Assembly (NCBI GenBank): GCA_964036665.1
Contig: OZ038528.1
Span: 11,724,501-11,788,500 of the forward strand
Origin: Gordius sp. MW1
Taxonomy: Eukaryota > Nematomorpha > Gordioida > Gordea > Gordiidae
Reading direction: 5' to 3'
Length of the DNA: 64,000 bases
Shown in pieces: positions 138-64,000 of this stretch (its first letter is position 1; each line of letters starts with the position of its first letter). The position numbers and the translations under genes are program-made. The notes under the pieces are model-generated. The model searched no databases and had not been told where the DNA came from. It was given only the letters and a program-made list of their open reading frames with translations.

Positions 138-171
138 CGCATAGTGCATTTTTGAAAAATTAAGCACTCAC

Positions 172-19120: not shown

Positions 19121-19124
19121 ATTT

Positions 19125-27798: not shown

Positions 27799-27819
27799 TT
27801 GAAAAATTAAGCACTCACG

Positions 27820-28870: not shown

Positions 28871-29195
28871 ACGCAACAATAAAACGTTGTCTTTTGTCAA
28901 AATGATAGTTCTCGCAGCTTAAAACCTCTTTTCGGAAGTCAATCGAGGATAATAGGATTCTCAAATTGGCTTACTTTTATATATTTTTTTATGCTCTTTC
29001 ACATAGAATCGAAAAAAATAAATATTTTTACCTTAAAATTTTTCACATATTTTTCTTTGAACCGTATTCATCCGATGAAAGTTGTCGTTTTCAGACGTGG
29101 TTTCCATGATAAAAAGTAAAAATTTATCAGAATCAGAAAACTATTACTTTGAAATCATGATCGCATAGTGCGTTTTTGAAAAATTAAGCACTCAC

Positions 29196-38600: not shown

Positions 38601-38870
38601 AACAATAAAACGTTGTCTTTTGTCAAAATGATAGTTCTCGCAGCTTAAAACCTCTTTTCGGAAGTCAATCGAGGATAATAGGATTCTCAAATTGGCTTAC
38701 TTTTATATATTTTTTTATGCTCTTTCACATAGAATCGAAAAAAATAAATATTTTTACCTTAAAATTTTTCACATATTTTTCTTTGAACCGTATTCATCCG
38801 ATGAAAGTTGTCGTTTTCAGACGTGGTTTCCATGATAAAAAGTAAAAATTTATCAGAATCAGAAAACTAT
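35640..38870. repeat. ~3 kb block, partner at 42750-45640
   Basis: Shared chain of variants with the partner: GGAATCTC (GGAA at 35656; 42767), AAATTAGCTTAC (36011; 43122), GTCAAAATGAGAG in a short unit (36242; 43353), CACATGGAATC, AAAATTTTCACAT with one T less (about 37091; 43859), a short unit (37249; 44017) and AGACCTGG after TTGTTGTTTTC (37811; 44578). The shift is 7111 bp at first and 6768 later because this copy has one extra monomer. Between the copies the CAGTAGTGG (35795) and CACTCGTGG (42905) changes differ. GAAATCAAGATC near 38535 is private. Confidence 0.8.
36564..36907 (+). repeat. Extra monomer inside the 35.6-38.9 kb block
   Basis: The landmarks 36242, 36564, 36908, 37249 here correspond to 43353, 43675, 44017 in the partner, so one unit of about 343 bp is extra. 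It carries GTCAAAATGAGAG and CACATGGAATC like the short unit just before it, which suggests local duplication of these features in this copy, or loss of one unit in the partner. Confidence 0.7.
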
Positions 38871-41800
38871 TACTTTGAAATCATGATCGCATAGTGCATT
38901 TTTGAAAAATTAAGCACTCACGTTGCGATACAACGTTGTCTTTTGTCAAAATGATAGTTCTCGCAGCTTAAAACCTCTTTTCGGAAGTCAATCGAGGATA
39001 ATAGGATTCTCAAATTGGCCTACTTTTATATATTTTTTCATGCTCTTTCACATAGAATCAAAAAAAAAATATTTTTACCTCAAAATTTTTCACACATTTT
39101 TCTTTGAACCGTATTCATCCGATGAAAGTTGTCGTTTTCAGACGTGGGATCCTTGATAAAAAGGAAAAATTTATCAGAATCAGAAAACTATTACTTTGAA
39201 ATCATGATCGCATAGTGCATTTTTGAAAAATTAAGCACTCACGTTGCGATACAACAAACTAATCGCAACAATAAAACGTTGTCTTTTGTCAAAATGATAG
39301 TTTTCGCAGCTTAAAACCTCTTTTCGGAAGTTAATCGAGGATAATAGGATTCTCAAATTGGCTTACTTTTATATATTTTTTCATGCTCTTTCACATAGAA
39401 TCGAAAAAAAATAATATTTTTACCTCAAAATTTTTCACATATTTTTATTTGAACCGTATTCATCCGAAGAAAGTTGTCGTTTTCAGACGTGGTTTCCATG
39501 ATAAAAAGTAAAAATTTATCAGAATCAGAAAACTATTACTTTGAAATCATGATCGCATAGTGCATTTTTGAAAAATTAAGCACTCACGTTGCGATACAAC
39601 AAACCGCAACAATAAAACGTTGTCTTTTGTCAAAATGATAGTTCTCGCAGCTTAAAACCTCTTTTCGGAAGTCAATAGAGGATAATAGGATTCTCAAATT
39701 GGCCTACTTTTATATATTTTTTCATGCTCTTTCACATAGAATCGAAAAAATTAAATATTTTTACCTCAAAATTTTTCACATATTTTTCTTTGAACCGTAT
39801 TCATCCGATGAAAGTTGTCGTTTTCCGACGTGGTTTCCATGATAAAAAGTAAAAATTTATCAGAATCAAAAAACTATTACTTTGAAATCATGATCGCATA
39901 GTGCATTTTTGAAAAATTAAGCACCCACGTTGCGATACAACAAACTAATCGCAACAATAAAACGTTGTCGTTTGTCAAAATGATAGTTCTCGCAGCTTAA
40001 AACCTCTTTTCGGAAGTCAATCGAGGATAATAGGAATCTCAAATTGGCTTACTTTTATATATTTTTTCATGCTCTTTCACATAGAATCGAAAAAAAAAAT
40101 ATTTTTACCTCAAAATTTTTCACATATTTTTCTTTGAACCGTATTCATCCGAAGAAAGTTGTCGTTTTCACTCGTGGTTTCCATGATAAAAAGTAAAAAT
40201 TTATCAGAATCAGAAAACTATTACTTTGAAATCATGATCGCATAGTGCATTTTTGAAAAATTAAGCACTCACGTTGCGATACAACAAACTAATCGCAACA
40301 ATAAAACGTTGTCTTTTGTCAAAATGATAGTTCTCGCAGCTTAAAACCTCTTTTCGGAAGTCAATCGAGGATAATAGGATTCTCAAATTGGCTTACTTTT
40401 ATATATTTTTTTATGCTCTTTCACATAGAATCGAAAAAAATAAATATTTTTACCTTAAAATTTTTCACATATTTTTCTTTGAACCGTATTCATCCGATGA
40501 AAGTTGTCGTTTTCAGACGTGGTTTCCATGATAAAAAGTAAAAATTTATCAGAATCAGAAAACTATTACTTTGAAATCATGATCGCATAGTGCATTTTTG
40601 AAAAATTAAGCACCCACGTTGCGATACAACAAACTAATCGCAACAATAAAACGTTGTCGTTTGTCAAAATGATAGTTCTCGCAGCTTAAAACCTCTTTTC
40701 GGAAGTCAATAGAGGATAATAGGATTCTCAAATTGGCCTACTTTTATATATTTTTTCATGCTCTTTCACATAGAATCGAAAAAATTAAATATTTTTACCT
40801 CAAAATTTTTCACATATTTTTCTTTGAACCGTATTCATCCGATGAAAGTTGTCGTTTTCCGACGTGGTTTCCATGATAAAAAGTAAAAATTTATCAGAAT
40901 CAAAAAACTATTACTTTGAAATCATGATCGCATAGTGCATTTTTGAAAAATTAAGCATCCACGTTGCGATACAACAAACTAATCGCAACAATAAAACGTT
41001 GTCGTTTGTCAAAATGATAGTTCTCGCAGCTTAAAACCTCTTTTCGGAAGTCAATCGAGGATAATAGGAATCTCAAATTGGCTTACTTTTATATATTTTT
41101 TCATGCTCTTTCACATAGAATCGAAAAAAAAAATATTTTTACCTCAAAATTTTTCACATATTTTTCTTTGAACCGTATTCATCCGAAGAAAGTTGTCGTT
41201 TTCAGACGTGGTTTCCATGATAAAAAGTAAAAATTTATCAGAATCAGAAAACTATTACTTTGAAATCATGATCGCATAGTGCATTTTTGAAAAATTAAGC
41301 ACTCACGTTGCGATACAACAAACTAATCGCAACAATAAAACGTTGTCTTTTGTCAAAATGATAGTTCTCGCAGCTTAAAACCTCTTTTCGGAAGTCAATC
41401 GAGGATAATAGGATTCTCAAATTGGCTTACTTTTATATATTTTTTTATGCTCTTTCACATAGAATCGAAAAAAATAAATATTTTTACCTTAAAATTTTTC
41501 ACATATTTTTCTTTGAACCGTATTCATCCGATGAAAGTTGTCGTTTTCAGACGTGGTTTCCATGATAAAAAGTAAAAATTTATCAGAATCAGAAAACTAT
41601 TACTTTTAAATCATGATCGCATAGTGCATTTTTGAAAAATTAAGCACTCACGTTGCGATACAACGTTGTCTTTTGTCAAAATGATAGTTCTCGCAGCTTA
41701 AAACCTCTTTTCGGAAGTCAATCGAGGATAATAGGATTCTCAAATTGGCCTACTTTTATATATTTTTTCATGCTCTTTCACATAGAATCAAAAAAAAAAT

Positions 41801-43220
41801 ATTTTTACCTCAAAATTTTTCACACATTTTTCTTTGAACCGTATTCATCCGATGAAAGTTGTCGTTTTCAGACGTGGGATCCTTGATAAAAAGGAAAAAT
41901 TTATCAGAATCAGAAAACTATTACTTTGAAATCATGATCGCATAGTGCATTTTTGAAAAATTAAGCACTCACGTTGCGATACAACAAACTAATCGCAACA
42001 ATAAAACGTTGTCTTTTGTCAAAATGATAGTTTTCGCAGCTTAAAACCTCTTTTCGGAAGTTAATCGAGGATAATAGGATTCTTAAATTGGCTTACTTTT
42101 ATATATTTTTTCATGCTCTTTCACATAGAATCGAAAAAAAATAATATTTTTACCTCAAAATTTTTCACATATTTTTCTTTGAACCGTATTCATCCGAAGA
42201 AAGTTGTCGTTTTCAGACGTGGTTTCCATGATAAAAAGTAAAAATTTATCAGAATCAGAAAACTATTACTTTGAAATCATGATCGCATAGTGCATTTTTG
42301 AAAAATTAAGCACTCACGTTGCGATACAACAAACTAATCGCAACAATAAAACGTTGTCTTTTGTCAAAATGATAGTTCTCGCAGCTTAAAACCTCTTTTC
42401 GGAAGTCAATAGAGGATAATAGGATTCTCAAATTGGCCTACTTTTATATATTTTTTCATGCTCTTTCACATAGAATCGAAAAAATTAAATATTTTTACCT
42501 CAAAATTTTTCACATATTTTTCTTTGAACCGTATTCATCCGATGAAAGTTGTCGTTTTCCGACGTGGTTTCCATGATAAAAAGTAAAAATTTATCAGAAT
42601 CAAAAAACTATTACTTTGAAATCATGATCGCATAGTGCATTTTTGAAAAATTAAGCACCCACGTTGCGATACAACAAACTAATCGCAACAATAAAACGTT
42701 GTCGTTTGTCAAAATGATAGTTCTCGCAGCTTAAAACCTCTTTTCGGAAGTCAATCGAGGATAATAGGAATCTCAAATTGGCTTACTTTTATATATTTTT
42801 TCATGCTCTTTCACATAGAATCGAAAAAAAAAAATATTTTTACCTCAAAATTTTTCACATATTTTTCTTTGAACCGTATTCATCCGAAGAAAGTTGTCGT
42901 TTTCACTCGTGGTTTCCATGATAAAAAGTAAAAATTTATCAGAATCAGAAAACTATTACTTTGAAATCATGATCGCATAGTGCATTTTTGAAAAATTAAG
43001 CACTCACGTTGCGATACAACAAACTAATCGCAACAATAAAACGTTGTCTTTTGTCAAAATGATAGTTCTCGCAGCTTAAAACCTCTTTTCGGAAGTCAAT
43101 CGAGGATAATAGGATTCTCAAATTAGCTTACTTTTATATATTTTTTTATGCTCTTTCACATAGAATCGAAAAAAATAAATATTTTTACCTTAAAATTTTT
43201 CACATATTTTTCTTTGAACC
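38360..43220. repeat. Overlapping blocks at 2730/2734 and 1034 bp shifts
   Basis: About 38360-40600 matches 41090-43330: short landmark (38922; 41652), GGATCC (39147; 41877), AAAAAGGAAAAA, GAAGTTAATCG (about 39328; 42058) and CACTCGTGG (40171; 42905). The shift grows from 2730 to 2734 because TAAT is lost in the hairpin near 39605. Within this, AAAAAATTAAAT (TTAAAT at 39751; 40785) with CACCCACG and TTGTCGTTTGTC marks a three-monomer shift of 1034 bp. CATCCACG (about 40957) is a private change. GATCCTTGATAAAAAGG is shared with the 29.5-32.8 kb pentamer. Confidence 0.75.
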
Positions 43221-45640
43221 GTATTCATCCGATGAAAGTTGTCGTTTTCAGACGTGGTTTCCATGATAAAAAGTAAAAATTTACCAGAATCAGAAAACTA
43301 TTACTTTGAAATCATGATCGCATAGTGCATTTTTGAAAAATTAAGCACTCACGTTGCGATACAACGTTGTCTTTTGTCAAAATGAGAGTTCTCGCAGCTT
43401 AAAACCTCTTTTCGGAAGTCAATCGAGGATAATAGGATTCTCAAATTGGCCTACTTTTATATATTTTTTCATGCTCTTTCACATGGAATCAAAAAAAAAT
43501 ATTTTTACCTCAAAATTTTTCACACATTTTTCTTTGAACCGTATTCATCCGATGAAAGTTGTCGTTTTCAGACGTGGTTTCCTTGATAAAAAGTAAAAAT
43601 TTATCAGAATCAGAAAACTATTACTTTGAAATCATGATCGCATAGTGCATTTTTGAAAAATTAAGCACTCACGTTGCGATACAACAAACTAATCGCAACA
43701 ATAAAACGTTGTCTTTTGTCAAAATGATAGTTCTCGCAGCTTAAAACCTCTTTTCGGAAGTCAATCGAGGATAATAGGATTCTCAAATTGGCTTACTTTT
43801 ATATATTTTTTTATGCTCTTTCACATAGAATCGAAAAAAATAAATATTTTTACCTTAAAATTTTCACATATTTTTCTTTGAACCGTATTCATCCGATGAA
43901 AGTTGTCGTTTTCAGACGTGGTTTCCATGATAAAAAGTAAAAATTTATCAGAATCAGAAAACTATTACTTTGAAATCATGATCGCATAGTGCATTTTTGA
44001 AAAATTAAGCACTCACGTTGCGATACAACGTTGTCTTTTGTCAAAATGATAGTTCTCGCAGCTTAAAACCTCTTTTCGGAAGTCAATAGAGGATAATAGG
44101 ATTCTCAAATTGGCCTACTTTTATATATTTTTCATGCTCTTTCACATAGAATCAAAAAAAAATATTTTTACCTCAAAATTTTTCACACATTTTTCTTTGA
44201 ACCGTATTCATCCGATGAAAGTTGTCGTTTTCCGACGTGGTTTCCATGATAAAAAGTAAAAATTTATCAGAATCAGAAAACTATTACTTTGAAATCATGA
44301 TCGCATAGTGCATTTTTGAAAAATTAAGCACTCACGTTGCGATACAACAAACTAATCGCAACAATAAAACGTTGTCTTTTGTCAAAATGATAGTTCTCGC
44401 AGCTTAAAACCTCTTTTCGGAAGTCAATCGAGGATAATAGGATTCTCAAATTGGCTTACTTTTATATATTTTTTTATGCTCTTTCACATAGAATCGAAAC
44501 AATAAATATTTTTACCTTAAAATTTTTCACATATTTTTCTTTGAACCGTATTCATCCGATGAAAGTTGTTGTTTTCAGACCTGGTTTCCATGATAAAAAG
44601 TAAAAATTTATCAGAATCAGAAAACTATTACTTTGAAATCATGATCGCATAGTGCATTTTTGAAAAATTAAGCACTCACGTTGCGATACAACGTTGTCTT
44701 TTGTCAAAATGATAGTTCTCGCAGCTTAAAACCTCTTTTCGGAAGTCAATCGAGGATAATAGGATTCTCAAATTGGCCTACTTTTATATATTTTTTCATG
44801 CTCTTTCACATAGAATCAAAAAAAAATATTTTTACCTCAAAATTTTCACACATTTTTCTTTGAACCGTATTCATCCGATGAAAGTTGTCGTTTTCAGACG
44901 TGGTTTCCTTGATAAAAAGTAAAAATTTATCAGAATCAGAAAACTATTACTTTGAAATCATGATCGCATAGTGCATTTTTGAAAAATTAAGCACTCACGT
45001 TGCGATACAACAAACTAATCGCAACAATAAAACGTTGTCTTTTGTCAAAATGATAGTTCTCGCAGCTTAAAACCTCTTTTCGGAAGTCAATCGAGGATAA
45101 TAGGATTCTCAAATTGGCTTACTTTTATATATTTTTTCATGCTCTTTCACATAGAATCGAAAAAAAAAATATTTTTACCTCAAAATTTTTCACATATTTT
45201 TCTTTGAACCGTATTCATCCGAAGAAAGTTGTCGTTTTCAGACGTGGTTTCCATGATAAAAAGTAAAAATTTATCAGAATCAGAAAACTATTACTTTGAA
45301 ATCATGATCGCATAGTGCATTTTTGAAAAATTAAGCACTCACGTTGCGATACAACAAACTAATCGCAACAATAAAACGTTGTCTTTTGTCAAAATGATAG
45401 TTCTCGCAGCTTAAAACCTCTTTTCGGAAGTCAATCGAGGATAATAGGATTCTCAAATTGGCTTACTTTTATATATTTTTTTATGCTCTTTCACATAGAA
45501 TCGAAAAAAATAAATATTTTTACCTTAAAATTTTTCACATATTTTTCTTTGAACCGTATTCATCCGATGAAAGTTGTCGTTTTCAGACGTGGTTTCCATG
45601 ATAAAAAGTAAAAATTTATCAGAATCAGAAAACTATTACT
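42750..45640. repeat. ~2.9 kb block, partner at 35640-38870
   Basis: Second copy of the block at 35.6-38.9 kb, one monomer shorter. It overlaps at its left side with the second copy of the 2730-bp duplication, so breakpoints of two events lie close together near 43.1-43.3 kb. A private ATTTACCAGAATC change is at about 43283. The part 44370-44880, with CGAAACAATAAAT and AGACCTGG, is repeated again at 46750-47270 (shift 2385; short landmark 44680 and 47065). Confidence 0.78.
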
Positions 45641-45734
45641 TTAAAATCATGATCGCATAGTGCATTTTTGAAAAATTAAGCACTCACGTTGCGATACAAC
45701 AAACTAATCGCAACAATAAAACGTTGTCTTTTGT

Positions 45735-45750
45735 CATAATAATAGTTCTC
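45735..45750 (+). other. GTCATAAT variant marking the right third of the array
   Basis: Long units right of about 45.7 kb often read TTTTGTCATAATGATAG or TTTTGTCATAATAATAG where the rest of the array has TTTTGTCAAAATGATAG. First seen near 45735 and last near 63570. I saw none to the left of 45.7 kb. Together with the CACGTG change this defines a local subfamily spread by the 6170-bp doubling. Confidence 0.75.
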
Positions 45751-46273
45751 GCAGCTTAAAACCTCTTTTCGGAAGTCAATCGAGGATAATAGGATTCTCA
45801 AATTGGCCTACTTTTATATGTTTTTTCATGCTCTTTCACATAGAATCAAAAAAAAAATATTTTTAACTCAAAATTTTTCACATATTTTTCTTTGAACCGT
45901 ATTCATCCGATGAAAGTTGTCGTTTTCAGACGTGGTTTCCTTGATAAAAAGTAAAAATTTATCAGAATCAGAAAACTATTACTTTGAAATCATGATCGCA
46001 TAGTGCATTTTTGAAAAATTAAGCACTCACGTTGCGATACAACAAACTAATCGCAACAATAAAACGTTGTCTTTTGTCATAATGATAGTTCTCGCAGCTT
46101 AAAACCTCTTTTCGGAAGTCAATCGATGATAATAGGATTCTCAAATTGGCCTACTTTTATATATTTTTTCATGCTCTTTCACATAGAATCGAAAAAAATA
46201 AATATTTTTACCTCAAAATTTTTCACATATTTTTCTTTCAACCGTATTCATCCGATGAAAGTTGTCGTTTTCT

Positions 46274-46279
46274 CACGTG
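46274..46279. other. CACGTG (E-box/G-box) variant, first of 19
   Basis: In 19 monomers TTTCAGACGTGG is replaced by TTTCTCACGTGG, giving the palindrome CACGTG: starts at 46274, 46619, 47971, 48316, 48658, 49004, 50037, 51068, the same eight plus 6170 (52444, 52789, 54141, 54486, 54828, 55174, 56207, 57238), and 59302, 61362, 63768. None was seen left of 46 kb. CACGTG is the core bound by bHLH factors in animals and fungi and bHLH/bZIP factors in plants; binding here is not shown. Confidence 0.85.
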
Positions 46280-49200
46280 GTTTCCATGATAAAAAGTAAA
46301 AATTTATCAGAATCAGAAAACTATTACTTTGAAATCATGATCGCATAGTGCATTTTTGAAAAATTAAGCACTCACGTTGCGATACAACAAACTAATCGCA
46401 ACAATAAAACGTTGTCTTTTGTCATAATAATAGTTCTCGCAGCTTAAAACCTCTTTTCGGAAGTCAATCGATGATAATAGGATTCTCAAATTGGCCTACT
46501 TTTATATATTTTTTCATGCTCTTTCACATAGAATCGAAAAAAATAAATATTTTTACCTCAAAATTTTTCACATATTTTTCTTTCAACCGTATTCATCCGA
46601 TGAAAGTTGTCGTTTTCTCACGTGGTTTCCATGATAAAAAGTAAAAATTTATCAGAATCAGAAAACTATTACTTTGAAATCATGATCGCATAGTGCATTT
46701 TTGAAAAATTAAGCACTCACGTTGCGATACAACAAACTAATCGCAACAATAAAACGTTGTCTTTTGTCAAAATGATAGTTCTCGCAGCTTAAAACCTCTT
46801 TTCGGAAGTCAATCGAGGATAATAGGATTCTCAAATTGGCTTACTTTTATATATTTTTTTATGCTCTTTCACATAGAATCGAAACAATAAATATTTTTAC
46901 CTTAAAATTTTTCACATATTTTTCTTTGAACCGTATTCATCCGATGAAAGTTGTTGTTTTCAGACCTGGTTTCCATGATAAAAAGTAAAAATTTATCAGA
47001 ATCAGAAAACTATTACTTTGAAATCATGATCGCATAGTGCATTTTTGAAAAATTAAGCACTCACGTTGCGATACAACGTTGTCTTTTGTCAAAATGATAG
47101 TTCTCGCAGCTTAAAACCTCTTTTCGGAAGTCAATCGAGGATAATAGGATTCTCAAATTGGCCTACTTTTATATATTTTTTCATGCTCTTTCACATAGAA
47201 TCAAAAAAAAATATTTTTACCTCAAAATTTTCACACATTTTTCTTTGAACCGTATTCATCCGATGAAAGTTGTCGTTTTCCGACGTGGTTTCCATGATAA
47301 AAAGTAAAAATTTATCAGAATCAGAAAACTATTACTTTGAAATCATGATCGCATAGTGCATTTTTGAAAAATTAAGCACTCACGTTGCGATACAACAAAC
47401 TAATCGCAACAATAAAACGTTGTCTTTTGTCAAAATGATAGTTCTCGCAGCTTAAAACCTCTTTTCGGAAGTCAATCGAGAATAATAGGATTCTCAAATT
47501 GGCCTACTTTTATATATTTTTTTATGCTCTTTCACATAGAATCGAAAAAAATAAATATTTTTACCTTAAAATTTTCACATATTTTTCTTTGAACCGTATT
47601 CATCCGATGAAAGTTGTCGTTTTCAGACGTGGTTTCCATGATAAAAAGTAAAAATTTATCAGAATCAGAAAACTATTACTTTGAAATCATGATCGCATAG
47701 TGCATTTTTGAAAAATTAAGCACTCACGTTGCGATACAACAAACTAATCGCAACAATAAAACGTTGTCTTTTGTCAAAATGATAGTTCTCGCAGCTTAAA
47801 ACCTCTTTTCGGAAGTCAATCGAGAATAATAGGATTCTCAAATTGGCCTACTTTTATATATTTTTTTATGCTCTTTCACATAGAATCGAAAAAAATAAAT
47901 ATTTTTACCTCAAAATTTTTTACATATTTTTCTTTCAACCGTATTCATCCGATGAAAGTTGTCGTTTTCTCACGTGGTTTCCATGATAAAAAGTAAAAAT
48001 TTATCAGAATCAGAAAACTATTACTTTGAAATCATGATCGCATAGTGCATTTTTGAAAAATTAAGCACTCACGTTGCGATACAACAAACTAATCGCAACA
48101 ATAAAACGTTGTCTTTTGTCATAATAATAGTTCTCGCAGCTTAAAACCTCTTTTCGGAAGTCAATCGATGATAATAGGATTCTCAAATTGGCCTACTTTT
48201 ATATATTTTTTCATGCTCTTTCACATAGAATCGAAAAAAATAAATATTTTTACCTCAAAATTTTTCACATATTTTTCTTTCAACCGTATTCATCCGATGA
48301 AAGTTGTCGTTTTCTCACGTGGTTTCCATGATAAAAAGTAAAAATTTATCAGAATCAGAAAACTATTACTTTGAAATCATGATCGCATAGTGCATTTTTG
48401 AAAAATTAAGCACTCACGTTGCGATACAACAAACTAATCGCAACAATAAAACGTTGTCTTTTGTCATAATAATAGTTCTCGCAGCTTAAAACCTCTTTTC
48501 GGAAGTCAATCGAGGATAATAGGATTCTCAAATTGGCCTACTTTTATATGTTTTTTCATGCTCTTTCACATAGAATCAAAAAAAAATATTTTTAACTCAA
48601 AATTTTTCACATATTTTTCTTTCAACCGTATTCATCCGATGAAAGTTGTCGTTTTCTCACGTGGTTTCCATAATAAAAAGTAAAAATTTATCAGAATCAG
48701 AAAACTATTACTTTGAAATCATGATCGCATAGTGCATTTTTGAAAAATTAAGCACTCACGTTGCGATACAACAAACTAATCGCAACAATAAAACGTTGTC
48801 TTTTGTCATAATGATAGTTCTCGCAGCTTAAAACCTCTTTTCGGAAGTCAATCGAGGATAATAGGATTCTCAAATTGGCCTACTTTTATATGTTTTTTCA
48901 TGCTCTTTTACATAGAATCGAAAAAAAATAAATATTTTTACCTCAAAATTTTTCACATATTTTTCTTTCAACCGTATTCATCCGATGAAAGTTGTCGTTT
49001 TCTCACGTGGTTTCCATAATAAAAAGTAAAAATTTATCAGAATCAGAAAACTATTACTTTGAAATCATGATCGCATAGTGCATTTTTGAAAAATTAAGCA
49101 CTCACGTTGCGATACAACAAACTAATCGCAACAATAAAACGTTGTCTTTTGTCAAAATGATAGTTCTCGCAGCTTAAAACCTCTTTTCGGAAGTCAATCG

Positions 49201-51569
49201 AGGATAATAGGATTCTCAAATTGGCCTACTTTTATATGTTTTTTCATGCTCTTTCACATAGAATCAAAAAAAATAAATATTTTTACCTTAAAATTTTTCA
49301 CATATTTTTCTTTCAACCGTATTCATCCGATGAAAGTTGTCGTTTTCAGACGTGGTTTCCATGATAAAAAGTAAAAATTTATCAGAATCAGAAAACTATT
49401 ACTTTGAAATCATGATCGCATAGTGCATTTTTGAAAAATTAAGCACTCACGTTGCGATACAACAAACTAATCGCAACAATAAAACGTTGTCTTTTGTCAA
49501 AATGATAGTTCTCGCAGCTTAAAACCTCTTTTCGGAAGTCAATCGAGGATAATAGGATTCTCAAATTGGCCTACTTTTATATGTTTTTTCATGCTCTTTC
49601 ACATAGAATCAAAAAAAAAATATTTTTAACTCAAAATTTTTCACATATTTTTCTTTGAACCGTATTCATCCGATGAAAGTTGTCGTTTTCAGACGTGGTT
49701 TCCTTGATAAAGAGTGAAAATTTATCAGAATCAGAAAACTATTACTTTGAAATCATGATCGCATAGTGCATTTTTGAAAAATTAAGCACTCACGTTGCGA
49801 TACAACAAACTAATCGCAACAATAAAACGTTGTCTTTTGTCATAATGATAGTTCTCGCAGCTTAAAACCTCTTTTCGGAAGTCAATCGATGATAATAGGA
49901 TTCTCAAATTGGCCTACTTTTATATATTTTTTCATGCTCTTTCACATAGAATCGAAAAAAATAAATATTTTTACCTCAAAATTTTTCACATATGTTTCTT
50001 TCAACCGTATTCATCCGATGAAAGTTGTCGTTTTCTCACGTGGTTTCCATGATAAAAAGTAAAAATTTATCAGAATCAGAAAACTATTACTTTGAAATCA
50101 TGATCGCATAGTGCATTTTTGAAAAATTAAGCACTCACGTTGCGATACAACAAACTAATCGCAACAATAAAACGTTGTCTTTTGTCAAAATAATAGTTCT
50201 CGCAGCTTAAAACCTCTTTTCGGAAGTCAATCGAGGATAATAGGATTCTCAAATTGGCCTACTTTTATATGTTTTTTCATGCTCTTTCACATAGAATCAA
50301 AAAAAAAATATTTTTAACTCAAAATTTTTCACATATTTTTCTTTGAACCGTATTCATCCGATGAAAGTTGTCGTTTTCAGACGTGGTTTCCTTGATAAAA
50401 AGTAAAAATTTATCAGAATCAGAAAACTATTACTTTGAAATCATGATCGCATAGTGCATTTTTGAAAAATTAAGCACTCACGTTGCGATACAACAAACTA
50501 ATCGCAACAATAAAACGTTGTCTTTTGTCAAAATAATAGTTCTCGCAGCTTAAAACCTCTTTTCGGAAGTCAATCGAGGATAATAGGATTCTCAAATTGG
50601 CCTACTTTTATATGTTTTTTCATGCTCTTTCACATAGAATCAAAAAAAAAATATTTTTAACTCAAAATTTTTCACATATTTTTCTTTGAACCGTATTCAT
50701 CCGATGAAAGTTGTCGTTTTCAGTCGTGGTTTCCTTGATAAAAAGTAAAAATTTATCAGAATCAGAAAACTATTACTTTGAAATCATGATCGCATAGTGC
50801 ATTTTTGAAAAATTAAGCACTCACGTTGCGATACAACAAACTAATCGCAACAATAAAACGTTGTCTTTTGTCATAATGATAGTTCTCGCAGCTTAAAACC
50901 TCTTTTCGGAAGTCAATCGATGATAATAGGATTCTCAAATTGGCCTACTTTTATATATTTTTTCATGCTCTTTCACATAGAATCGAAAAAAATAAATATT
51001 TTTACCTCAAAATTTTTCACATATTTTTCTTTCAACCGTATTCATCCGATGAAAGTTGTCGTTTTCTCACGTGGTTTCCATGATAAAAAGTAAAAATTTA
51101 TCAGAATCAGAAAACTATTACTTTGAAATCATGATCGCATAGTGCATTTTTGAAAAATTAAGCACTCACGTTGCGATACAACAAACTAATCGCAACAATA
51201 AAACGTTGTCTTTTGTCAAAATAATAGTTCTCGCAGCTTAAAACCTCTTTTCGGAAGTCAATCGAGGATAATAGGATTCTCAAATTGGCCTACTTTTATA
51301 TGTTTTTTCATGCTCTTTCATATAGAATCAAAAAAAAAATATTTTTAACTCAAAATTTTTCACATATTTTTCTTTGAACCGTATTCATCCGATGAAAGTT
51401 GTCGTTTTCAGACGTGGTTTCCTTGATAAAAAGTAAAAATTTATCAGAATCAGAAAACTATTACTTTGAAATCATGATCGCATAGTGCATTTTTGAAAAA
51501 TTAAGCACTCACGTTGCGATACAACAAACTAATCGCAACAATAAAACGTTGTCTTTTGTCAAAATAATA

Positions 51570-54500
51570 GTTCTCGCAGCTTAAAACCTCTTTTCGGAAG
51601 TCAATCGAGGATAATAGGATTCTCAAATTGGCTTACTTTTATATATTTTTTTATGCTCTTTCACATAGAATCGAAAAAAATAAATATTTTTACCTTAAAA
51701 TTTTTCACATATTTTTCTTTGAACCGTATTCATCCGATGAAAGTTGTCGTTTTCAGACGTGGTTTCCATGATAAAAAGTAAAAATTTATCAGAATCAGAA
51801 AACTATTACTTTAAAATCATGATCGCATAGTGCATTTTTGAAAAATTAAGCACTCACGTTGCGATACAACAAACTAATCGCAACAATAAAACGTTGTCTT
51901 TTGTCATAATAATAGTTCTCGCAGCTTAAAACCTCTTTTCGGAAGTCAATCGAGGATAATAGGATTCTCAAATTGGCCTACTTTTATATGTTTTTTCATG
52001 CTCTTTCACATAGAATCAAAAAAAAAATATTTTTAACTCAAAATTTTTCACATATTTTTCTTTGAACCGTATTCATCCGATGAAAGTTGTCGTTTTCAGA
52101 CGTGGTTTCCTTGATAAAAAGTAAAAATTTATCAGAATCAGAAAACTATTACTTTGAAATCATGATCGCATAGTGCATTTTTGAAAAATTAAGCACTCAC
52201 GTTGCGATACAACAAACTAATCGCAACAATAAAACGTTGTCTTTTGTCATAATGATAGTTCTCGCAGCTTAAAACCTCTTTTCGGAAGTCAATCGATGAT
52301 AATAGGATTCTCAAATTGGCCTACTTTTATATATTTTTTCATGCTCTTTCACATAGAATCGAAAAAAATAAATATTTTTACCTCAAAATTTTTCACATAT
52401 TTTTCTTTCAACCGTATTCATCCGATGAAAGTTGTCGTTTTCTCACGTGGTTTCCATGATAAAAAGTAAAAATTTATCAGAATCAGAAAACTATTACTTT
52501 GAAATCATGATCGCATAGTGCATTTTTGAAAAATTAAGCACTCACGTTGCGATACAACAAACTAATCGCAACAATAAAACGTTGTCTTTTGTCATAATAA
52601 TAGTTCTCGCAGCTTAAAACCTCTTTTCGGAAGTCAATCGATGATAATAGGATTCTCAAATTGGCCTACTTTTATATATTTTTTCATGCTCTTTCACATA
52701 GAATCGAAAAAAATAAATATTTTTACCTCAAAATTTTTCACATATTTTTCTTTCAACCGTATTCATCCGATGAAAGTTGTCGTTTTCTCACGTGGTTTCC
52801 ATGATAAAAAGTAAAAATTTATCAGAATCAGAAAACTATTACTTTGAAATCATGATCGCATAGTGCATTTTTGAAAAATTAAGCACTCACGTTGCGATAC
52901 AACAAACTAATCGCAACAATAAAACGTTGTCTTTTGTCAAAATGATAGTTCTCGCAGCTTAAAACCTCTTTTCGGAAGTCAATCGAGGATAATAGGATTC
53001 TCAAATTGGCTTACTTTTATATATTTTTTTATGCTCTTTCACATAGAATCGAAACAATAAATATTTTTACCTTAAAATTTTTCACATATTTTTCTTTGAA
53101 CCGTATTCATCCGATGAAAGTTGTTGTTTTCAGACCTGGTTTCCATGATAAAAAGTAAAAATTTATCAGAATCAGAAAACTATTACTTTGAAATCATGAT
53201 CGCATAGTGCATTTTTGAAAAATTAAGCACTCACGTTGCGATACAACGTTGTCTTTTGTCAAAATGATAGTTCTCGCAGCTTAAAACCTCTTTTCGGAAG
53301 TCAATCGAGGATAATAGGATTCTCAAATTGGCCTACTTTTATATATTTTTTCATGCTCTTTCACATAGAATCAAAAAAAAATATTTTTACCTCAAAATTT
53401 TCACACATTTTTCTTTGAACCGTATTCATCCGATGAAAGTTGTCGTTTTCCGACGTGGTTTCCATGATAAAAAGTAAAAATTTATCAGAATCAGAAAACT
53501 ATTACTTTGAAATCATGATCGCATAGTGCATTTTTGAAAAATTAAGCACTCACGTTGCGATACAACAAACTAATCGCAACAATAAAACGTTGTCTTTTGT
53601 CAAAATGATAGTTCTCGCAGCTTAAAACCTCTTTTCGGAAGTCAATCGAGAATAATAGGATTCTCAAATTGGCCTACTTTTATATATTTTTTTATGCTCT
53701 TTCACATAGAATCGAAAAAAATAAATATTTTTACCTTAAAATTTTCACATATTTTTCTTTGAACCGTATTCATCCGATGAAAGTTGTCGTTTTCAGACGT
53801 GGTTTCCATGATAAAAAGTAAAAATTTATCAGAATCAGAAAACTATTACTTTGAAATCATGATCGCATAGTGCATTTTTGAAAAATTAAGCACTCACGTT
53901 GCGATACAACAAACTAATCGCAACAATAAAACGTTGTCTTTTGTCAAAATGATAGTTCTCGCAGCTTAAAACCTCTTTTCGGAAGTCAATCGAGAATAAT
54001 AGGATTCTCAAATTGGCCTACTTTTATATATTTTTTTATGCTCTTTCACATAGAATCGAAAAAAATAAATATTTTTACCTCAAAATTTTTTACATATTTT
54101 TCTTTCAACCGTATTCATCCGATGAAAGTTGTCGTTTTCTCACGTGGTTTCCATGATAAAAAGTAAAAATTTATCAGAATCAGAAAACTATTACTTTGAA
54201 ATCATGATCGCATAGTGCATTTTTGAAAAATTAAGCACTCACGTTGCGATACAACAAACTAATCGCAACAATAAAACGTTGTCTTTTGTCATAATAATAG
54301 TTCTCGCAGCTTAAAACCTCTTTTCGGAAGTCAATCGATGATAATAGGATTCTCAAATTGGCCTACTTTTATATATTTTTTCATGCTCTTTCACATAGAA
54401 TCGAAAAAAATAAATATTTTTACCTCAAAATTTTTCACATATTTTTCTTTCAACCGTATTCATCCGATGAAAGTTGTCGTTTTCTCACGTGGTTTCCATG

Positions 54501-57500
54501 ATAAAAAGTAAAAATTTATCAGAATCAGAAAACTATTACTTTGAAATCATGATCGCATAGTGCATTTTTGAAAAATTAAGCACTCACGTTGCGATACAAC
54601 AAACTAATCGCAACAATAAAACGTTGTCTTTTGTCATAATAATAGTTCTCGCAGCTTAAAACCTCTTTTCGGAAGTCAATCGAGGATAATAGGATTCTCA
54701 AATTGGCCTACTTTTATATGTTTTTTCATGCTCTTTCACATAGAATCAAAAAAAAATATTTTTAACTCAAAATTTTTCACATATTTTTCTTTCAACCGTA
54801 TTCATCCGATGAAAGTTGTCGTTTTCTCACGTGGTTTCCATAATAAAAAGTAAAAATTTATCAGAATCAGAAAACTATTACTTTGAAATCATGATCGCAT
54901 AGTGCATTTTTGAAAAATTAAGCACTCACGTTGCGATACAACAAACTAATCGCAACAATAAAACGTTGTCTTTTGTCATAATGATAGTTCTCGCAGCTTA
55001 AAACCTCTTTTCGGAAGTCAATCGAGGATAATAGGATTCTCAAATTGGCCTACTTTTATATGTTTTTTCATGCTCTTTTACATAGAATCGAAAAAAAATA
55101 AATATTTTTACCTCAAAATTTTTCACATATTTTTCTTTCAACCGTATTCATCCGATGAAAGTTGTCGTTTTCTCACGTGGTTTCCATAATAAAAAGTAAA
55201 AATTTATCAGAATCAGAAAACTATTACTTTGAAATCATGATCGCATAGTGCATTTTTGAAAAATTAAGCACTCACGTTGCGATACAACAAACTAATCGCA
55301 ACAATAAAACGTTGTCTTTTGTCAAAATGATAGTTCTCGCAGCTTAAAACCTCTTTTCGGAAGTCAATCGAGGATAATAGGATTCTCAAATTGGCCTACT
55401 TTTATATGTTTTTTCATGCTCTTTCACATAGAATCAAAAAAAATAAATATTTTTACCTTAAAATTTTTCACATATTTTTCTTTCAACCGTATTCATCCGA
55501 TGAAAGTTGTCGTTTTCAGACGTGGTTTCCATGATAAAAAGTAAAAATTTATCAGAATCAGAAAACTATTACTTTGAAATCATGATCGCATAGTGCATTT
55601 TTGAAAAATTAAGCACTCACGTTGCGATACAACAAACTAATCGCAACAATAAAACGTTGTCTTTTGTCAAAATGATAGTTCTCGCAGCTTAAAACCTCTT
55701 TTCGGAAGTCAATCGAGGATAATAGGATTCTCAAATTGGCCTACTTTTATATGTTTTTTCATGCTCTTTCACATAGAATCAAAAAAAAAATATTTTTAAC
55801 TCAAAATTTTTCACATATTTTTCTTTGAACCGTATTCATCCGATGAAAGTTGTCGTTTTCAGACGTGGTTTCCTTGATAAAGAGTGAAAATTTATCAGAA
55901 TCAGAAAACTATTACTTTGAAATCATGATCGCATAGTGCATTTTTGAAAAATTAAGCACTCACGTTGCGATACAACAAACTAATCGCAACAATAAAACGT
56001 TGTCTTTTGTCATAATGATAGTTCTCGCAGCTTAAAACCTCTTTTCGGAAGTCAATCGATGATAATAGGATTCTCAAATTGGCCTACTTTTATATATTTT
56101 TTCATGCTCTTTCACATAGAATCGAAAAAAATAAATATTTTTACCTCAAAATTTTTCACATATGTTTCTTTCAACCGTATTCATCCGATGAAAGTTGTCG
56201 TTTTCTCACGTGGTTTCCATGATAAAAAGTAAAAATTTATCAGAATCAGAAAACTATTACTTTGAAATCATGATCGCATAGTGCATTTTTGAAAAATTAA
56301 GCACTCACGTTGCGATACAACAAACTAATCGCAACAATAAAACGTTGTCTTTTGTCAAAATAATAGTTCTCGCAGCTTAAAACCTCTTTTCGGAAGTCAA
56401 TCGAGGATAATAGGATTCTCAAATTGGCCTACTTTTATATGTTTTTTCATGCTCTTTCACATAGAATCAAAAAAAAAATATTTTTAACTCAAAATTTTTC
56501 ACATATTTTTCTTTGAACCGTATTCATCCGATGAAAGTTGTCGTTTTCAGACGTGGTTTCCTTGATAAAAAGTAAAAATTTATCAGAATCAGAAAACTAT
56601 TACTTTGAAATCATGATCGCATAGTGCATTTTTGAAAAATTAAGCACTCACGTTGCGATACAACAAACTAATCGCAACAATAAAACGTTGTCTTTTGTCA
56701 AAATAATAGTTCTCGCAGCTTAAAACCTCTTTTCGGAAGTCAATCGAGGATAATAGGATTCTCAAATTGGCCTACTTTTATATGTTTTTTCATGCTCTTT
56801 CACATAGAATCAAAAAAAAAATATTTTTAACTCAAAATTTTTCACATATTTTTCTTTGAACCGTATTCATCCGATGAAAGTTGTCGTTTTCAGTCGTGGT
56901 TTCCTTGATAAAAAGTAAAAATTTATCAGAATCAGAAAACTATTACTTTGAAATCATGATCGCATAGTGCATTTTTGAAAAATTAAGCACTCACGTTGCG
57001 ATACAACAAACTAATCGCAACAATAAAACGTTGTCTTTTGTCATAATGATAGTTCTCGCAGCTTAAAACCTCTTTTCGGAAGTCAATCGATGATAATAGG
57101 ATTCTCAAATTGGCCTACTTTTATATATTTTTTCATGCTCTTTCACATAGAATCGAAAAAAATAAATATTTTTACCTCAAAATTTTTCACATATTTTTCT
57201 TTCAACCGTATTCATCCGATGAAAGTTGTCGTTTTCTCACGTGGTTTCCATGATAAAAAGTAAAAATTTATCAGAATCAGAAAACTATTACTTTGAAATC
57301 ATGATCGCATAGTGCATTTTTGAAAAATTAAGCACTCACGTTGCGATACAACAAACTAATCGCAACAATAAAACGTTGTCTTTTGTCAAAATAATAGTTC
57401 TCGCAGCTTAAAACCTCTTTTCGGAAGTCAATCGAGGATAATAGGATTCTCAAATTGGCCTACTTTTATATGTTTTTTCATGCTCTTTCATATAGAATCA

Positions 57501-57800
57501 AAAAAAAAATATTTTTAACTCAAAATTTTTCACATATTTTTCTTTGAACCGTATTCATCCGATGAAAGTTGTCGTTTTCAGACGTGGTTTCCTTGATAAA
57601 AAGTAAAAATTTATCAGAATCAGAAAACTATTACTTTGAAATCATGATCGCATAGTGCATTTTTGAAAAATTAAGCACTCACGTTGCGATACAACAAACT
57701 AATCGCAACAATAAAACGTTGTCTTTTGTCAAAATAATAGTTCTCGCAGCTTAAAACCTCTTTTCGGAAGTCAATCGAGGATAATAGGATTCTCAAATTG
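51570..57800. repeat. 18-monomer block, copy 2 (6170 bp)
   Basis: Second copy of the 18-mer. I compared many individual rare variants and found none that differ between the two copies, including A-run lengths next to several of them. The match stops near 57803, where this copy has GGCCTACTTTTATATG and copy 1 (51633) has GGCTTACTTTTATATA. The last short monomer of the window (53235) lies in this copy. Confidence 0.9.
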
Positions 57801-60800
57801 GCCTACTTTTATATGTTTTTTCATGCTCTTTCACATAGAATCAAAAAAAAAAATATTTTTACCTTAAAATTTTTCACATATTTTTCTTTCAACCGTATTC
57901 ATCCGATGAAAGTTGTCGTTTTCAGACGTGGTTTCCATGATAAAAAGTAAAAATTTATCAGAATCAGAAAACTATTACTTTGAAATCATGATCGCATAGT
58001 GCATTTTTGAAAAATTAAGCACTCACGTTGCGATACAACAAACTAATCGCAACAATAAAACGTTGTCTTTTGTCAAAATGATAGTTCTCGCAGCTTAAAA
58101 CCTCTTTTCGGAAGTCAATCGAGGATAATAGGATTCTCAAATTGGCTTACTTTTATATATTTTTTTATGCTCTTTCACATAGAATCGAAAAAAATAAATA
58201 TTTTTACCTTAAAATTTTTCACATATTTTTCTTTGAACCGTATTCATCCGATGAAAGTTGTCGTTTTCAGACGTGGTTTCCATGATAAAAAGTAAAAATT
58301 TATCAGAATCAGAAAACTATTACTTTGAAATCATGATCGAATAGTGCATTTTTGAAAAATTAAGCACTCACGTTGCGATACAACAAACTAATCGCAACAA
58401 TAAAACCTTGTCTTTTGTCAAAATGATAGTTCTCGCAGCTTAAAACCTCTTTTCGGAAGTCAATCGAGGATAATAGGATTCTCAAATTGGCTTACTTTTA
58501 TATATTTTTTCATGCTCTTTCACATAGAATCGAAAAAAATAAATATTTTTACCTTAAAATTTTTCACATATTTTTCTTTCAACCGTATTCATCCGATGAA
58601 AGTTGTCGTTTTCAGACGTGGTTTCCATGATAAAAAGTAAAAATTTATCAGAATCAGAAAACTATTACTTTGAAATCATGATCGCATAGTGCATTTTTGA
58701 AAAATTAAGCACTCACGTTGCGATACAACAAACTAATCGCAACAATAAAACGTTGTCTTTTGTCAAAATGATAGTTCTCGCAGCTTAAAACCTCTTTTCG
58801 GAAGTCAATCGAGGATAATAGGATTCTCAAATTGGCTTACTTTTATATGCTTTTTCATGCTCTTTCACATAGAATCAAAAAAAAATATTTTTACCTCAAA
58901 ATTTTTCACATATTTTTCTTTGAACCGTATTCATCCGATGAAAGTTGTCGTTTTCAGACGTGGTTTCCTTGATAAAAAGTAAAAATTTATCAGAATCAGA
59001 AAACTATTACTTTGAAATCATGATCGCATAGTGCATTTTTGAAAAATTAAGCACTCACGTTGCGATACAACAAACTAATCGCAACAATAAAACGTTGTCT
59101 TTTGTCATAATGATAGTTCTCGCAGCTTAAAACCTCTTTTCGGAAGTCAATCGATGATAATAGGATTCTCAAATTGGCCTACTTTTATATATTTTTTCAT
59201 GCTCTTTCACATAGAATCGAAAAAAATAAATATTTTTACCTCTAAATTTTTCACATATTTTTCTTTCAACCGTATTCATCCGATGAAAGTTGTCGTTTTC
59301 TCACGTGGTTTCCATGATAAAAAGTAAAAATTTGTCAGAATCAGAAAACTATTACTTTGAAATCATGATCGCATAGTGCATTTTTGAAAAATTAAGCACT
59401 CACGTTGCGATACAACAAACTAATCGCAACAATAAAACGTTGCCTTTTGTCAAAATGATAGTTCTCGCAGCTTAAAACCTCTTTTCGGAAGTCAATCGAG
59501 GATAATAGGATTCTCAAATTGGCTTACTTTTATATATTTTTTCATGCTCTTTCACATAGAATCGAAAAAAAAAATATTTTTACCTCAAAATTTTTCACAT
59601 ATTTTTCTTTGAACCGTATTCATCCGATGAAAGTTGTCGTTTTCAGACGTGGTTTCCATGATAAAAAGTAAAAATTTATCAGAATCAGAAAACTATTACT
59701 TTGAAATCATGATCGCATAGTGCATTTTTGAAAAATTAAGCACTCACGTTGCGATACAACAAACTAATCGCAACAATAAAACGTTGTCTTTTGTCAAAAT
59801 GATAGTTCTCGCAGCTTAAAACCTCTTTTCGGAAGTCAATCGAGGATAATAGGATTCTCAAATTGGCTAACTTTTATATATTTTTTCATGCTCTTTCACA
59901 TAAAATCGAAAAAAAAATATTTTTACCTCAAAATTTTTCACATATTTTTCTTTGAACCGTATTCATCCGAAGAAAGTTGTCGTTTTCAGACGTGGTTTCC
60001 ATGATAAAAAGTAAAAATTTATCAGAATCAGAAAACTATTACTTTGAAATCATGATCGCATAGTGCATTTTTGAAAAATTAAGCACTCACGTTGCGATAC
60101 AACAAACTAATCGCAACAATAAAACGTTGTCTTTTGTCAAAATGATAGTTCTCGCAGCTTAAAACCTCTTTTCGGAAGTCAATCGAGGATAATAGGATTC
60201 TCAAATTGGCCTACTTTTATATATTTTTCCATGCTCTTTAACATAGAATCAAAAAAAATAAATATTTTTACCTCAAAATATTTCACATATTTTTCTTTCA
60301 ACCGTATTCATCCGATGAAAGTTGTCGTTTTCAGACGTGGTTTCCATGATAAAAAGTAAAAATTTATCAGAATCAGAAAACTATTACTTTGAAATCATGA
60401 TCGCATAGTGCATTTTTGAAAAATTAAGCACTCACGTTGCGATACAACAAACTAATCGCAACAATAAAACGTTGTCTTTTGTCAAAATGATAGTTCTCGC
60501 AGCTTAAAACCTCTTTTCGGAAGTCAATCGAGGATAATAGGATTCTCAAATTGGCTTACTTTTATATATTTTTTTATGCTCTTTCACATAGAATCGAAAA
60601 AAATAAATATTTTTACCTTAAAATTTTTCACATATTTTTTTTTGAACCGTATTCATCCGATGAAAGTTGTCGTTTTCAGACGTGGTTTCCATGATAAAAA
60701 GTAAAAATTTATCAGAATCAGAAAACTATTACTTTGAAATCATGATCGAATAGTGCATTTTTGAAAAATTAAGCACTCACGTTGCGATACAACAAACTAA

Positions 60801-63800
60801 TCGCAACAATAAAACGTTGTCTTTTGTCAAAATGATAGTTCTCGCAGCTTAAAACCTCTTTTCGGAAGTCAATCGAGGATAATTCAAATTGGCCTACTTT
60901 TATATGTTTTTTCATGCTCTTTCACATAGAATCAAAAAAAAAAAATATTTTTACCTCAAAATTTTTCACATATTTTTCTTTGAACCGTATTCATCCGATG
61001 AAAGTTGTCGTTTTCAGACGTGGTTTCCTTGATAAAAAGTAAAAATTTATCAGAATCAGAAAACTATTACTTTGAAATCATGATCGCATAGTGCATTTTT
61101 GAAAAATTAAGCACTCACGTTGCGATACAACAAACTAATCGCAACAATAAAACGTTGTCTTTTGTCATAATGATAGTTCTCGCAGCTTAAAACCTCTTTT
61201 CGGAAGTCAATCGATGATAATAGGATTCTCAAATTGGCCTACTTTTATATATTTTTTCATGCTCTTTCACATAGAATCGAAAAAAATAAATATTTTTACC
61301 TCTAAATTTTTCACATATTTTTCTTTCAACCGTATTCATCCGATGAAAGTTGTCGTTTTCTCACGTGGTTTCCATGATAAAAAGTAAAAATTTGTCAGAA
61401 TCAGAAAACTATTACTTTGAAATCATGATCGCATAGTGCATTTTTTAAAAATTAAGCACTCACGTTGCGATACAACAAACTAATCGCAACAATAAAACGT
61501 TGTCTTTTGTCAAAATGATAGTTCTCGCAGCTTAAAACCTCTTTTCGGAAGTCAATCGAGGATAATAGGATTCTCAAATTGGCTTACTTTTATATATTTT
61601 TTTATGCTCTTTCACATAGAATCGAAAAAAATAAATATTTTTACCTTAAAATATTTCACATATTTTTCTTTGAACCGTATTCATCCGATGAAAGTTGTCG
61701 TTTTCAGACGTGGTTTCCTTGATAAAAAGTAAAAATTTATCAGAATCAGAAAACTATTACTTTGAAATCATGATCGCATAGTGCATTTTTGAAAAATTAA
61801 GCACTCACGTTGCGATACAACAAACTAATCGCAACAATAAAACGTTGTTTTTTGTCAAAATGATAGTTCTCGCAGCTTAAAACCTCTTTTCGGAAGTCAA
61901 TAGAGGATAATAGGATTCTCAAATTGGCCTACTTTTATATATTTTTTCATGCTTTTTCACATAGAATCAAAAAAAATAAATATTTTTACCTCAAAATTTT
62001 TCACATATTTTTCTTTGAACCGTATTCATCCGATGAAAGTTGTCGTTTTCAGATGTGGTTTCCTTGATAAAAAGTAAAAATTTATCAGAATCAGAAAACT
62101 ATTACTTTGAAATCATGATCGCATAGTGCATTTTTGAAAAATTAAGCACTCACGTTTCGATACAACAAACTAATCGCAACAATAAAACGTTGTCTTTTGT
62201 CATAATGATAGTTCTCGCAGCTTAAAACCTCTTTTCGGAAGTCAATCGAGGATAATAGGATTCTCAAATTGGCTTACTTTTATATATTTTTTCATGCTCT
62301 TTCACATAGAATCGAAAAAAAAAAATTTTTACCTCAAAATTTTTCACATATTTTTCTTTGAACCGTATTCATCCGATGAAAGTTGTCGTTTTCAGACGTG
62401 GTTTCCATGATAAAAAGTAAAAATTTATCAGAATCAGAAAACTATTACTTTGAAATCATGATCGCATAGTGCATTTTTGAAAAATTAAGCACTCACGTTG
62501 CGATACAACAAACTAATCGCAACAATAAAACGTTGTCTTTTGTCAAAATGATACTTCTCGCAGCTTAAAACCTCTTTTCGGAAGTCAATCGAGGATAATA
62601 GGATTCTCAAATTGGCTTACTTTTATATATTTTTTCATGCTCTTTCACATAGAATCGAAAAAAAAAAATTTTTACCTCAAAATTTTTCACATATTTTTCT
62701 TTGAACCGTATTCATCCGATGAAAGTTGTCGTTTTCAGACGTGGTTTCCATGATAAAAAGTAAAAATTTATCAGAATCAGAAAACTATTACTTTGAAATC
62801 ATGATCGCATAGTGCATTTTTGAAAAATTAAGCACTCACGTTGCGATACAACAAACTAATCGCAACAATAAAACGTTGTCTTTTGTCAAAATGATACTTC
62901 TCGCAGCTTAAAACCTCTTTTCGGAAGTCAATCGAGGATAATAGGATTCTCAAATTGGCTTACTTTTATATATTTTTTCATGCTCTTTCACATAAAATCG
63001 AAAAAAAAATATTTTTACCTCAAAATTTTTCACATATTTTTCTTTGAACCGTATTCATCCGAAGAAAGTTGTCGTTTTCAGACGTGGTTTCCATGATAAA
63101 AAGTAAAAAATTATCAGAATCAGAAAACTATTACTTTGAAATCATGATCGCATAGTGCATTTTTGAAAAATTAAGCACTCACGTTGCGATACAACAAACT
63201 AATCGCAACAATAAAACGTTGTCTTTTGTCAAAATAATAGTTCTCGCAGCTTAAAACCTCTTTTCGGAAGTAAATCGAGGATAATAGGATTCTCAAATTG
63301 GCCTACTTTTATATGTTTTTTCATGCTCTTTCACATAGAATCAAAAAAAAATATTTTTAACTCAAAATTTTTCACATATTTTTCTTTGAACCGTATTCAT
63401 CCGATGAAAGTTGTCGTTTTGAGACGTGGTTTCCTTGATAAAAAGTAAAAATTTATCAGAATCAGAAAACTATTACTTTGAAATCATGATCGCATAGTGC
63501 ATTTTTGAAAAATTAAGCACTCACGTTGCGATACAACAAACTAATCGCAACAATAAAACGTTGTCTTTTGTCATAATGATAGTTCTCGCAGCTTAAAACC
63601 TCTTTTCGGAAGTCAATCGATGATAATAGGATTCTCAAATTGGCCTACTTTTATATATTTTTTCATGCTCTTTCACATAGAATCGAAAAAAATAAATATT
63701 TTTACCTCAAAATTTTTCACATATTTTTCTTTCAACCGTATTCATCCGATGAAAGTTGTCGTTTTCTCACGTGGTTTCCATGATAAAAAGTAAAAATTTA

Positions 63801-64000
63801 TCAGAATCAGAAAACTATTACTTTGAAATCATGATCGCATAGTGCATTTTTGAAAAATTAAGCACTCACGTTGCGATACAACAAACTAATCGCAACAATA
63901 AAACGTTGTCTTTTGTCAAAATGATACTTCTCGCAGCTTAAAACCTCTTTTCGGAAGTCAATCGAGGATAATCGGATTCTCAAATTGGCTTACTTTTATA
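57800..64000 (+). repeat. Mixed long monomers with short-range duplications
   Basis: About 18 long units and no short ones. Partial repeats: 58880-59530 with 60940-61590 (shift 2060; ACCTCTAAATTTTT at 59239 and 61299, TTTGTCAGAATC at 59331 and 61391), GATCGAATAG at 58335 and 60745 (shift 2410), CATAAAATCGAAA at 59901 and 62993 (shift 3092), and a single-unit doubling of 343 bp with GATACTTCTCG (62551; 62894; again near 63924). Private changes include AAAACCTTGTC (about 58405), ACGTTGCCTTTTG (about 59440), a 7-bp loss in GGATAATTCAAATTGG (about 60881), CACGTTTCGATAC (about 62153) and GTTTTGAGACG (about 63416). The array runs off the right edge of the window. Confidence 0.75.

What the first reader, a model, noticed from the sequence alone, without database searches (positions are those of the whole stretch)
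45400..57800. A 6170-bp, 18-monomer block doubled with no visible difference
Every rare variant I compared across the two copies sits at exactly +6170 and is identical, including an isolated GAGTGAAAA change, an ATATGTTTC change and A-run lengths. Single monomers in the same region differ from each other by several changes, so the 18-mer was copied as a block very recently. It is the largest and youngest-looking rearrangement in the window. The alternative is a false duplication made during assembly.
Basis: partly seen in the sequence, partly recalled or inferred. Interest (0 to 1): 0.7.

Follow-up and report, generated by a model that had tools for sequence, protein, structure and literature searches.

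The report
Tandem doubling inside satellite DNA
A stretch of 18 satellite repeats has been copied once, head to tail and without a single difference, in a way that looks like an ordinary misaligned exchange inside a megabase-sized repeat array of an animal chromosome.

Summary
The sequence at 45397-51632 matches itself at +6170 for 6236 bases with no difference. The block is 18 monomers of a ~345-bp satellite. In 300 permutations of monomer order the longest matching run was 3 monomers. The joint monomer matches the right-edge monomer on its left and the left-edge monomer on its right, with one switch inside a 66-bp identical tract. That is what one in-register unequal homologous exchange produces. 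Of four markers searched genome-wide, two occur only twice, both times in this window, so the event is local.

It is ordinary for this satellite, which forms megabase arrays; on C2 it is found from 8.466 to beyond 12.5 Mb, with a related family in between. The window holds two smaller zero-difference block duplications, and other sampled C2 stretches hold three more. C4 has a block pair at offset 26,128 bp with 0, 0 and 2 differences in three 1-kb samples. So this block is the largest in the window, not in the genome, and not uniquely young. An assembly artefact cannot be excluded without reads, but the joint argues against one. The species was not identified.

The parts
1..64000 (+). satellite array, ~345-bp monomer (a shorter form of about 315-323 bp is also common), one orientation, no gaps
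   Evidence: Tandem Repeats Finder: one row 1-64000, period 345, 188.9 copies; monomer spacings; 0 N in window
45397..51566 (+). block copy 1, 6170 bp, 18 monomers
   Evidence: identical to 51567-57736
51567..57736 (+). block copy 2, 6170 bp, 18 monomers
   Evidence: identical to copy 1
57737..57802 (+). 66 bp past copy 2 that still match at offset 6170 (third occurrence of the exchange tract)
   Evidence: exact run ends at 51632 + 6170 = 57802
51567..51632 (+). inferred exchange tract at the joint between the copies; joint monomer 51480-51824 switches here from right-edge to left-edge variants
   Evidence: three-way comparison of edge and joint monomers; surplus of 66 bp over the offset
45254..45396 (+). 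left shoulder: 142 identical bases plus one mismatch at 45396 (G versus A at 51566)
15875..19315 (+). smaller clean tandem duplication, offset 1678, zero differences (comparison case)
   Evidence: exact run 15875-17637, surplus 85
6504..9266 (+). smaller clean tandem duplication, offset 1346, zero differences (comparison case)
   Evidence: exact run 6504-7920, surplus 71
19112..28130 (+). 13-monomer (offset 4337) block pair with nested 5- and 8-monomer repeats, not difference-free (comparison case)
   Evidence: 14 monomers at lag 13 with 5 edits

Best explanation
A single out-of-register homologous exchange (unequal sister-chromatid crossover, or out-of-register break-induced replication, which leaves the same product) paired one monomer with the monomer 18 units along. 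It joined them inside a 66-bp stretch where the two are identical and so doubled 6170 bp head to tail. Shown here: identity, register, single-switch joint, and two copies genome-wide for two markers. Inferred: the enzymology, and that the event took place in the animal rather than in the assembly. The evidence calls for no function; it is one step in the normal turnover of a satellite array.
For: Zero differences over 6236 bases at one offset. The offset equals 18 whole monomers. Left-edge monomer P and right-edge monomer Q differ at 8 sites; the joint monomer J has Q's letter at site 87 and P's at the 7 sites from 154 to 334, a single switch. The markers at 49682 and 51291 occur twice each genome-wide, both in this window. 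Other exact runs also exceed their offset by a short tract: 34, 26 and 103 bp in sampled C2 stretches, and 85 and 71 bp in the window. A larger block pair exists in the same family on C4.
Against: No reads, depth or second individual were available. Within the joint monomer only one diagnostic site (87) supports the left side of the switch, although sequence further left also differs from the left flank. Exchange, out-of-register replication repair and insertion of an excised circle at its home site leave the same sequence. The other two markers searched also occur outside the window, 13 of 15 and 1 of 3 hits, so single variants need not be unique to the block.
Confidence: 0.85

Rival explanations
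1. False duplication made during assembly or polishing: one true copy was laid down twice, or two slightly different copies were made identical by ambiguous read mapping.
For: Zero differences in 6236 bases that hold 36 A or T runs of 6 or more. The assembly has at least one 200-N join, with a 99.9% inverted repeat on its two sides, at C2:13.00 Mb, so it is not free of hard places.
Against: The edge monomers share a 66-bp identical tract (142 more after one mismatch) and differ at 7 further sites to the right. An overlap-based assembler needs kilobases to join such ends unless reads contain the joint (recalled knowledge of assemblers). No gap lies in the window. The same signature recurs elsewhere.
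Confidence: 0.1
2. A circle of 18 monomers, excised and perhaps amplified by rolling-circle replication, was inserted in tandem.
For: The product at the home site would look the same. A solitary satellite copy of 369 bp sits on C1 at 17.79 Mb, which such a route could leave.
Against: Two markers show only two copies, one in each block copy; rolling-circle amplification would be expected to give more (recalled). It needs more steps than one exchange.
Confidence: 0.05

Closest known systems
Higher-order repeats of alpha satellite (passages on SF3 HORs in PMC8122249)
   Same: A multi-monomer block is copied as a unit; block copies are (up to) 97-100% alike while monomers within a block differ.
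   Different: Only two copies here, not a regular array; neighbouring monomers differ by about 4%, against about 30% in the passage.
Unequal crossover model of repeat evolution (Smith 1976 and later models; seen as discussion and references in passages of PMC8122249)
   Same: In-register, multi-unit tandem duplication with a hybrid joint monomer is the model's elementary step (the hybrid joint is recalled, not from the passage).
   Different: I found nothing here that departs from it.
Tribolium (peri)centromeric major/minor satellite regions with orientation switches (passages of PMC13081366)
   Same: Megabase satellite region, orientation switches, and a related but distinct second satellite inside it (C2:10.1-10.5 Mb).
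   Different: As far as sparse markers show, same-strand segments here run to hundreds of kilobases, against 75 kb for the longest symmetry reported in the passage; symmetry and inversion sites were not examined.

Membership tests
higher-order repeat (HOR) array | block of several monomers copied as a unit; block copies far more alike than monomers within a block | tested here: met
   0 differences between blocks against a median of 13 edits between neighbouring monomers
higher-order repeat (HOR) array | block repeated many times in a regular array | tested here: not met
   two of four searched markers are found exactly twice in the genome; the match at +6170 ends at 51632/57802
product of unequal homologous exchange | offset is a whole number of monomers | tested here: met
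   6170 bp = 18 monomers
product of unequal homologous exchange | joint monomer is a single-switch hybrid of the two edge monomers | tested here: met
centromeric satellite | megabase array at one place per chromosome | tested here: inconclusive
   clusters of hits seen on C1, C2, C3 and C2, C3, C4; the lists were cut at 100 of 336 and 100 of 217 places, so C5-C11 were not covered by them
centromeric satellite | binds centromeric histone CENH3/CENP-A | not testable with these tools
   needs ChIP or CUT&RUN

The most novel reading that the evidence does not exclude
The array is the active centromere, and blocks of 6-26 kb are doubled there often by out-of-register repair of forks that collapse at kinetochore chromatin. 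Zero-difference blocks would then mark where the kinetochore now sits, and their positions could be used to map it from sequence alone.
Probability: 0.12. Interest if true: 0.45.

Novelty: new member of a known kind. Interest (0 to 1): 0.17.

Why it matters
It is a clean example of the elementary step by which satellite arrays grow and homogenise, with the exchange placed within 66 bp, in an assembly that appears to resolve megabase arrays. Its value is as a data point; the mechanism and the kind of product are long known.

Tried and rejected
Other recurring offsets rest on 3 or 4 marker pairs without a chance control, and the five-marker recurrence at 5,851 bp near C2:8.58 Mb has none either; these are not relied on.

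Uniquely young: an edit-count comparison between blocks cut at fixed monomer phase (last lines) gave, for the chance that all edits fall in the other pair if ages are equal, 0.015 (lag 13, 5 edits), 0.010 (lag 5 at 15757, 3 edits), 0.010 (lag 5 at 21781, 3 edits), 0.31 (lag 8, 1 edit) and 0.21 (lag 5 at 29486, 1 edit). It supports the block being younger than some others, such as the lag-13 pair. But the 15757 block contains the clean 1678-bp duplication, so monomer phasing adds edge differences, and I do not lean on these values.

Coding content: the longest stop-free stretch in any of six frames is 88 codons, so no gene reading was pursued. Rfam was run on seven sampled loci only, not on the window.

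Species: COX1 on the 14.8-kb contig C12 reads through under the invertebrate mitochondrial code, and its best matches in PDB are cytochrome c oxidase subunit 1 chains (that these are animal chains is recalled). My impression of a bryozoan is recalled, not tested. One search listed five bryozoan papers; the four whose listed abstracts give a size (235, 216, 784 and 339 Mb) do not fit 211.8 Mb. A search for 345-bp centromeric satellites (25 of 118 papers listed) gave nothing that I could tie to this array from the listing. The BLAST-type genome search with the monomer returned nothing, as its note on common words allows; exact patterns were used instead. A pattern taken from about 58.3 kb of the window, meant to show the spread over contigs, matched only its own place and said nothing about that.

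Of the six private stretches listed, four were searched genome-wide; two (48879-48950 and 50694-50754) were not.

Full report
Observation. The whole window is one satellite array, period 345 bp, about 189 copies. At offset 6170 the sequence matches itself from 45397 to 51632, 6236 bases with no difference, after a left shoulder of 142 identical bases and one mismatch at 45396. In monomer terms, 18 monomers (45310-51479) equal the next 18 (51480-57649) with 1 edit, the edge site. Of 188 monomers cut out, 122 are distinct; neighbours differ by a median of 13 edits. Permuting monomer order 300 times gave a longest run of 3 matching monomers (at most 1 edit each) against 18 observed.

Anatomy of the joint. 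Call the left-edge monomer P (45310-45654), the joint monomer J (51480-51824) and the right-edge monomer Q (57650-57993). P and Q differ at 8 sites. J carries Q's letter at the first and P's letter at the other seven. J is therefore a hybrid with one switch, and the exact run exceeds the offset by 66 bp, which bounds the switch to 51567-51632. The offset is a whole number of monomers. This is what one in-register exchange between monomers 18 units apart gives. Sister-chromatid crossover, out-of-register break-induced replication and insertion of an excised circle at its home site cannot be told apart from this product.

Copies elsewhere. The window is C2:11724501-11788500 of a 211.8-Mb, 12-contig genome. 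Six stretches private to the two copies within the window were listed; four were searched genome-wide. Two occur only here, 2 hits each. One has 3 hits (the third on C4) and one has 15 (13 of them on C3 and C4). Taken singly, variants can recur on other chromosomes; the block as a whole is local.

Context. An 80-base pattern from the window has 5731 forward and 2749 reverse exact matches in the genome. On C2 the array starts at about 8.466 Mb and is still present at 12.5 Mb. Of 20 sampled 10-kb stretches (L031-L050), 8 are over 95% this satellite: five forward, three reverse. One more (10.50 Mb) is a related family with no match at that setting; L031 holds the array edge; the other 10, from 13.0 Mb on, have no match (its printed table covered 22 of the 50 loci then held). 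Marker lists suggest same-strand segments of up to hundreds of kilobases on C1, C2 and C3; the markers are sparse, so shorter switches could be missed, and the lists were cut at the first 100 of 336 and 100 of 217 places. The stretch at C2:10.50 Mb is a 346-349-bp satellite that aligns to this family at about 66-72% identity. An exact 91-base pattern from it has 134 hits; the places listed (the first 100) lie at C2:10.12-10.52 Mb.

Is it exceptional? Among exact runs of 650 bases or more in the window and eleven other C2 stretches, seven exceed their own offset: four in the window (offsets 6170, 1678, 1346, and 344, the last a single-monomer case) and three near the array's left end (2412, 1086, 690). 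So the window holds two smaller block duplications with no difference at all. A comparison of edit counts with older blocks does support this block being younger than some, such as the 13-monomer pair (5 edits, 0.015). On C4, three marker hits recur at offset 26,128 (positions, offsets); three 1-kb pairs fetched at that offset show 0, 0 and 2 mismatches, so the points sampled span 3,872,001-3,889,000. On C2, 8 marker pairs from two markers recur at 8,915 bp near 12.18-12.20 Mb; I could not read those bases. The finding is the largest of its kind in the window and an ordinary one in the genome.

Age. With assumed rates of 1e-8 to 1e-9 per base per generation, no difference in 6236 bases gives an upper 95% bound of about 24,000 to 240,000 generations (my arithmetic). 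Gene conversion between copies would make this a bound on the last homogenisation rather than on the duplication.

Assembly artefact. No reads are held. Against an artefact: the identical tract at the joint is only 66 bp (142 more after one mismatch), the window has no gap, and the same signature recurs elsewhere. For caution: polishing can make copies alike, and this assembly has a 200-N join at C2:13.00 Mb with a 99.9% inverted repeat of at least 4.29 kb on its two sides.

Known kinds. The passages I saw in PMC8122249 describe higher-order repeats and unequal crossing over; the block meets the first HOR criterion (block identity) and fails the second (many regular copies). The passages I saw in PMC13081366 describe orientation switches and major/minor satellites in Tribolium and state that such symmetries had been documented only in that genus. 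The strand switches here resemble that at a larger scale, but symmetry and switch points were not examined. Verdict: a real sequence feature, a new member of a known kind, low interest.

Noticed in passing
G000 C1, C2, C3 (marker positions): Satellite orientation switches: the listed markers fall into five same-strand segments on C1 (11.47-14.55 Mb), four on C2 (8.49-12.50 Mb) and five on C3 (12.62-16.35 Mb, list cut there). Whether switches lie at scaffold gaps was not checked.
   Followed up: partly
L036 (C2:10500001-10510000); pattern hits C2:10.12-10.52 Mb: A related satellite of 346-349 bp, about 66-72% identical to the window's family, lies in the middle of the C2 array region.
   Followed up: partly
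G000 C4:3870190-3915128: Block pair at offset 26,128 bp in the same satellite family, 0, 0 and 2 mismatches in three 1-kb pairs.
   Followed up: partly
L041 (C2:13000001-13010000) 1-9095: A 200-N gap (4288-4487) with a 99.9% inverted repeat of at least 4.29 kb on its two sides (the left arm abuts the gap), holding two histone 3' stem-loop matches; possibly a scaffolding fault or a histone cluster palindrome.
   Followed up: partly
L001 1425-1793 (C1:17.79 Mb): A solitary satellite copy of 369 bp, slightly over one monomer, 96% identical over its length, with no other copy in the 3 kb held.
   Followed up: no
G000 C8:2829490-2830827; C4:356383-379815 and 1458719-1486890; others: 23 of 24 COX1 matches lie outside the mitochondrial contig C12 (three of them below the family cut-off); one on C8 covers the whole matched range, and C4 has equal-scoring sets on opposite strands. 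They look like nuclear copies of mitochondrial DNA.
   Followed up: no
L031 end to L032 start (C2:8.466 Mb): The left edge of the array is made of visibly more diverged monomer sequence (by eye).
   Followed up: no
G000 C1: The 80-base pattern has one listed hit on C1 (at 17.79 Mb) before the list goes on to C2, although other markers show C1 arrays at 11.5-14.6 Mb, so C1 may carry a different subfamily.
   Followed up: no
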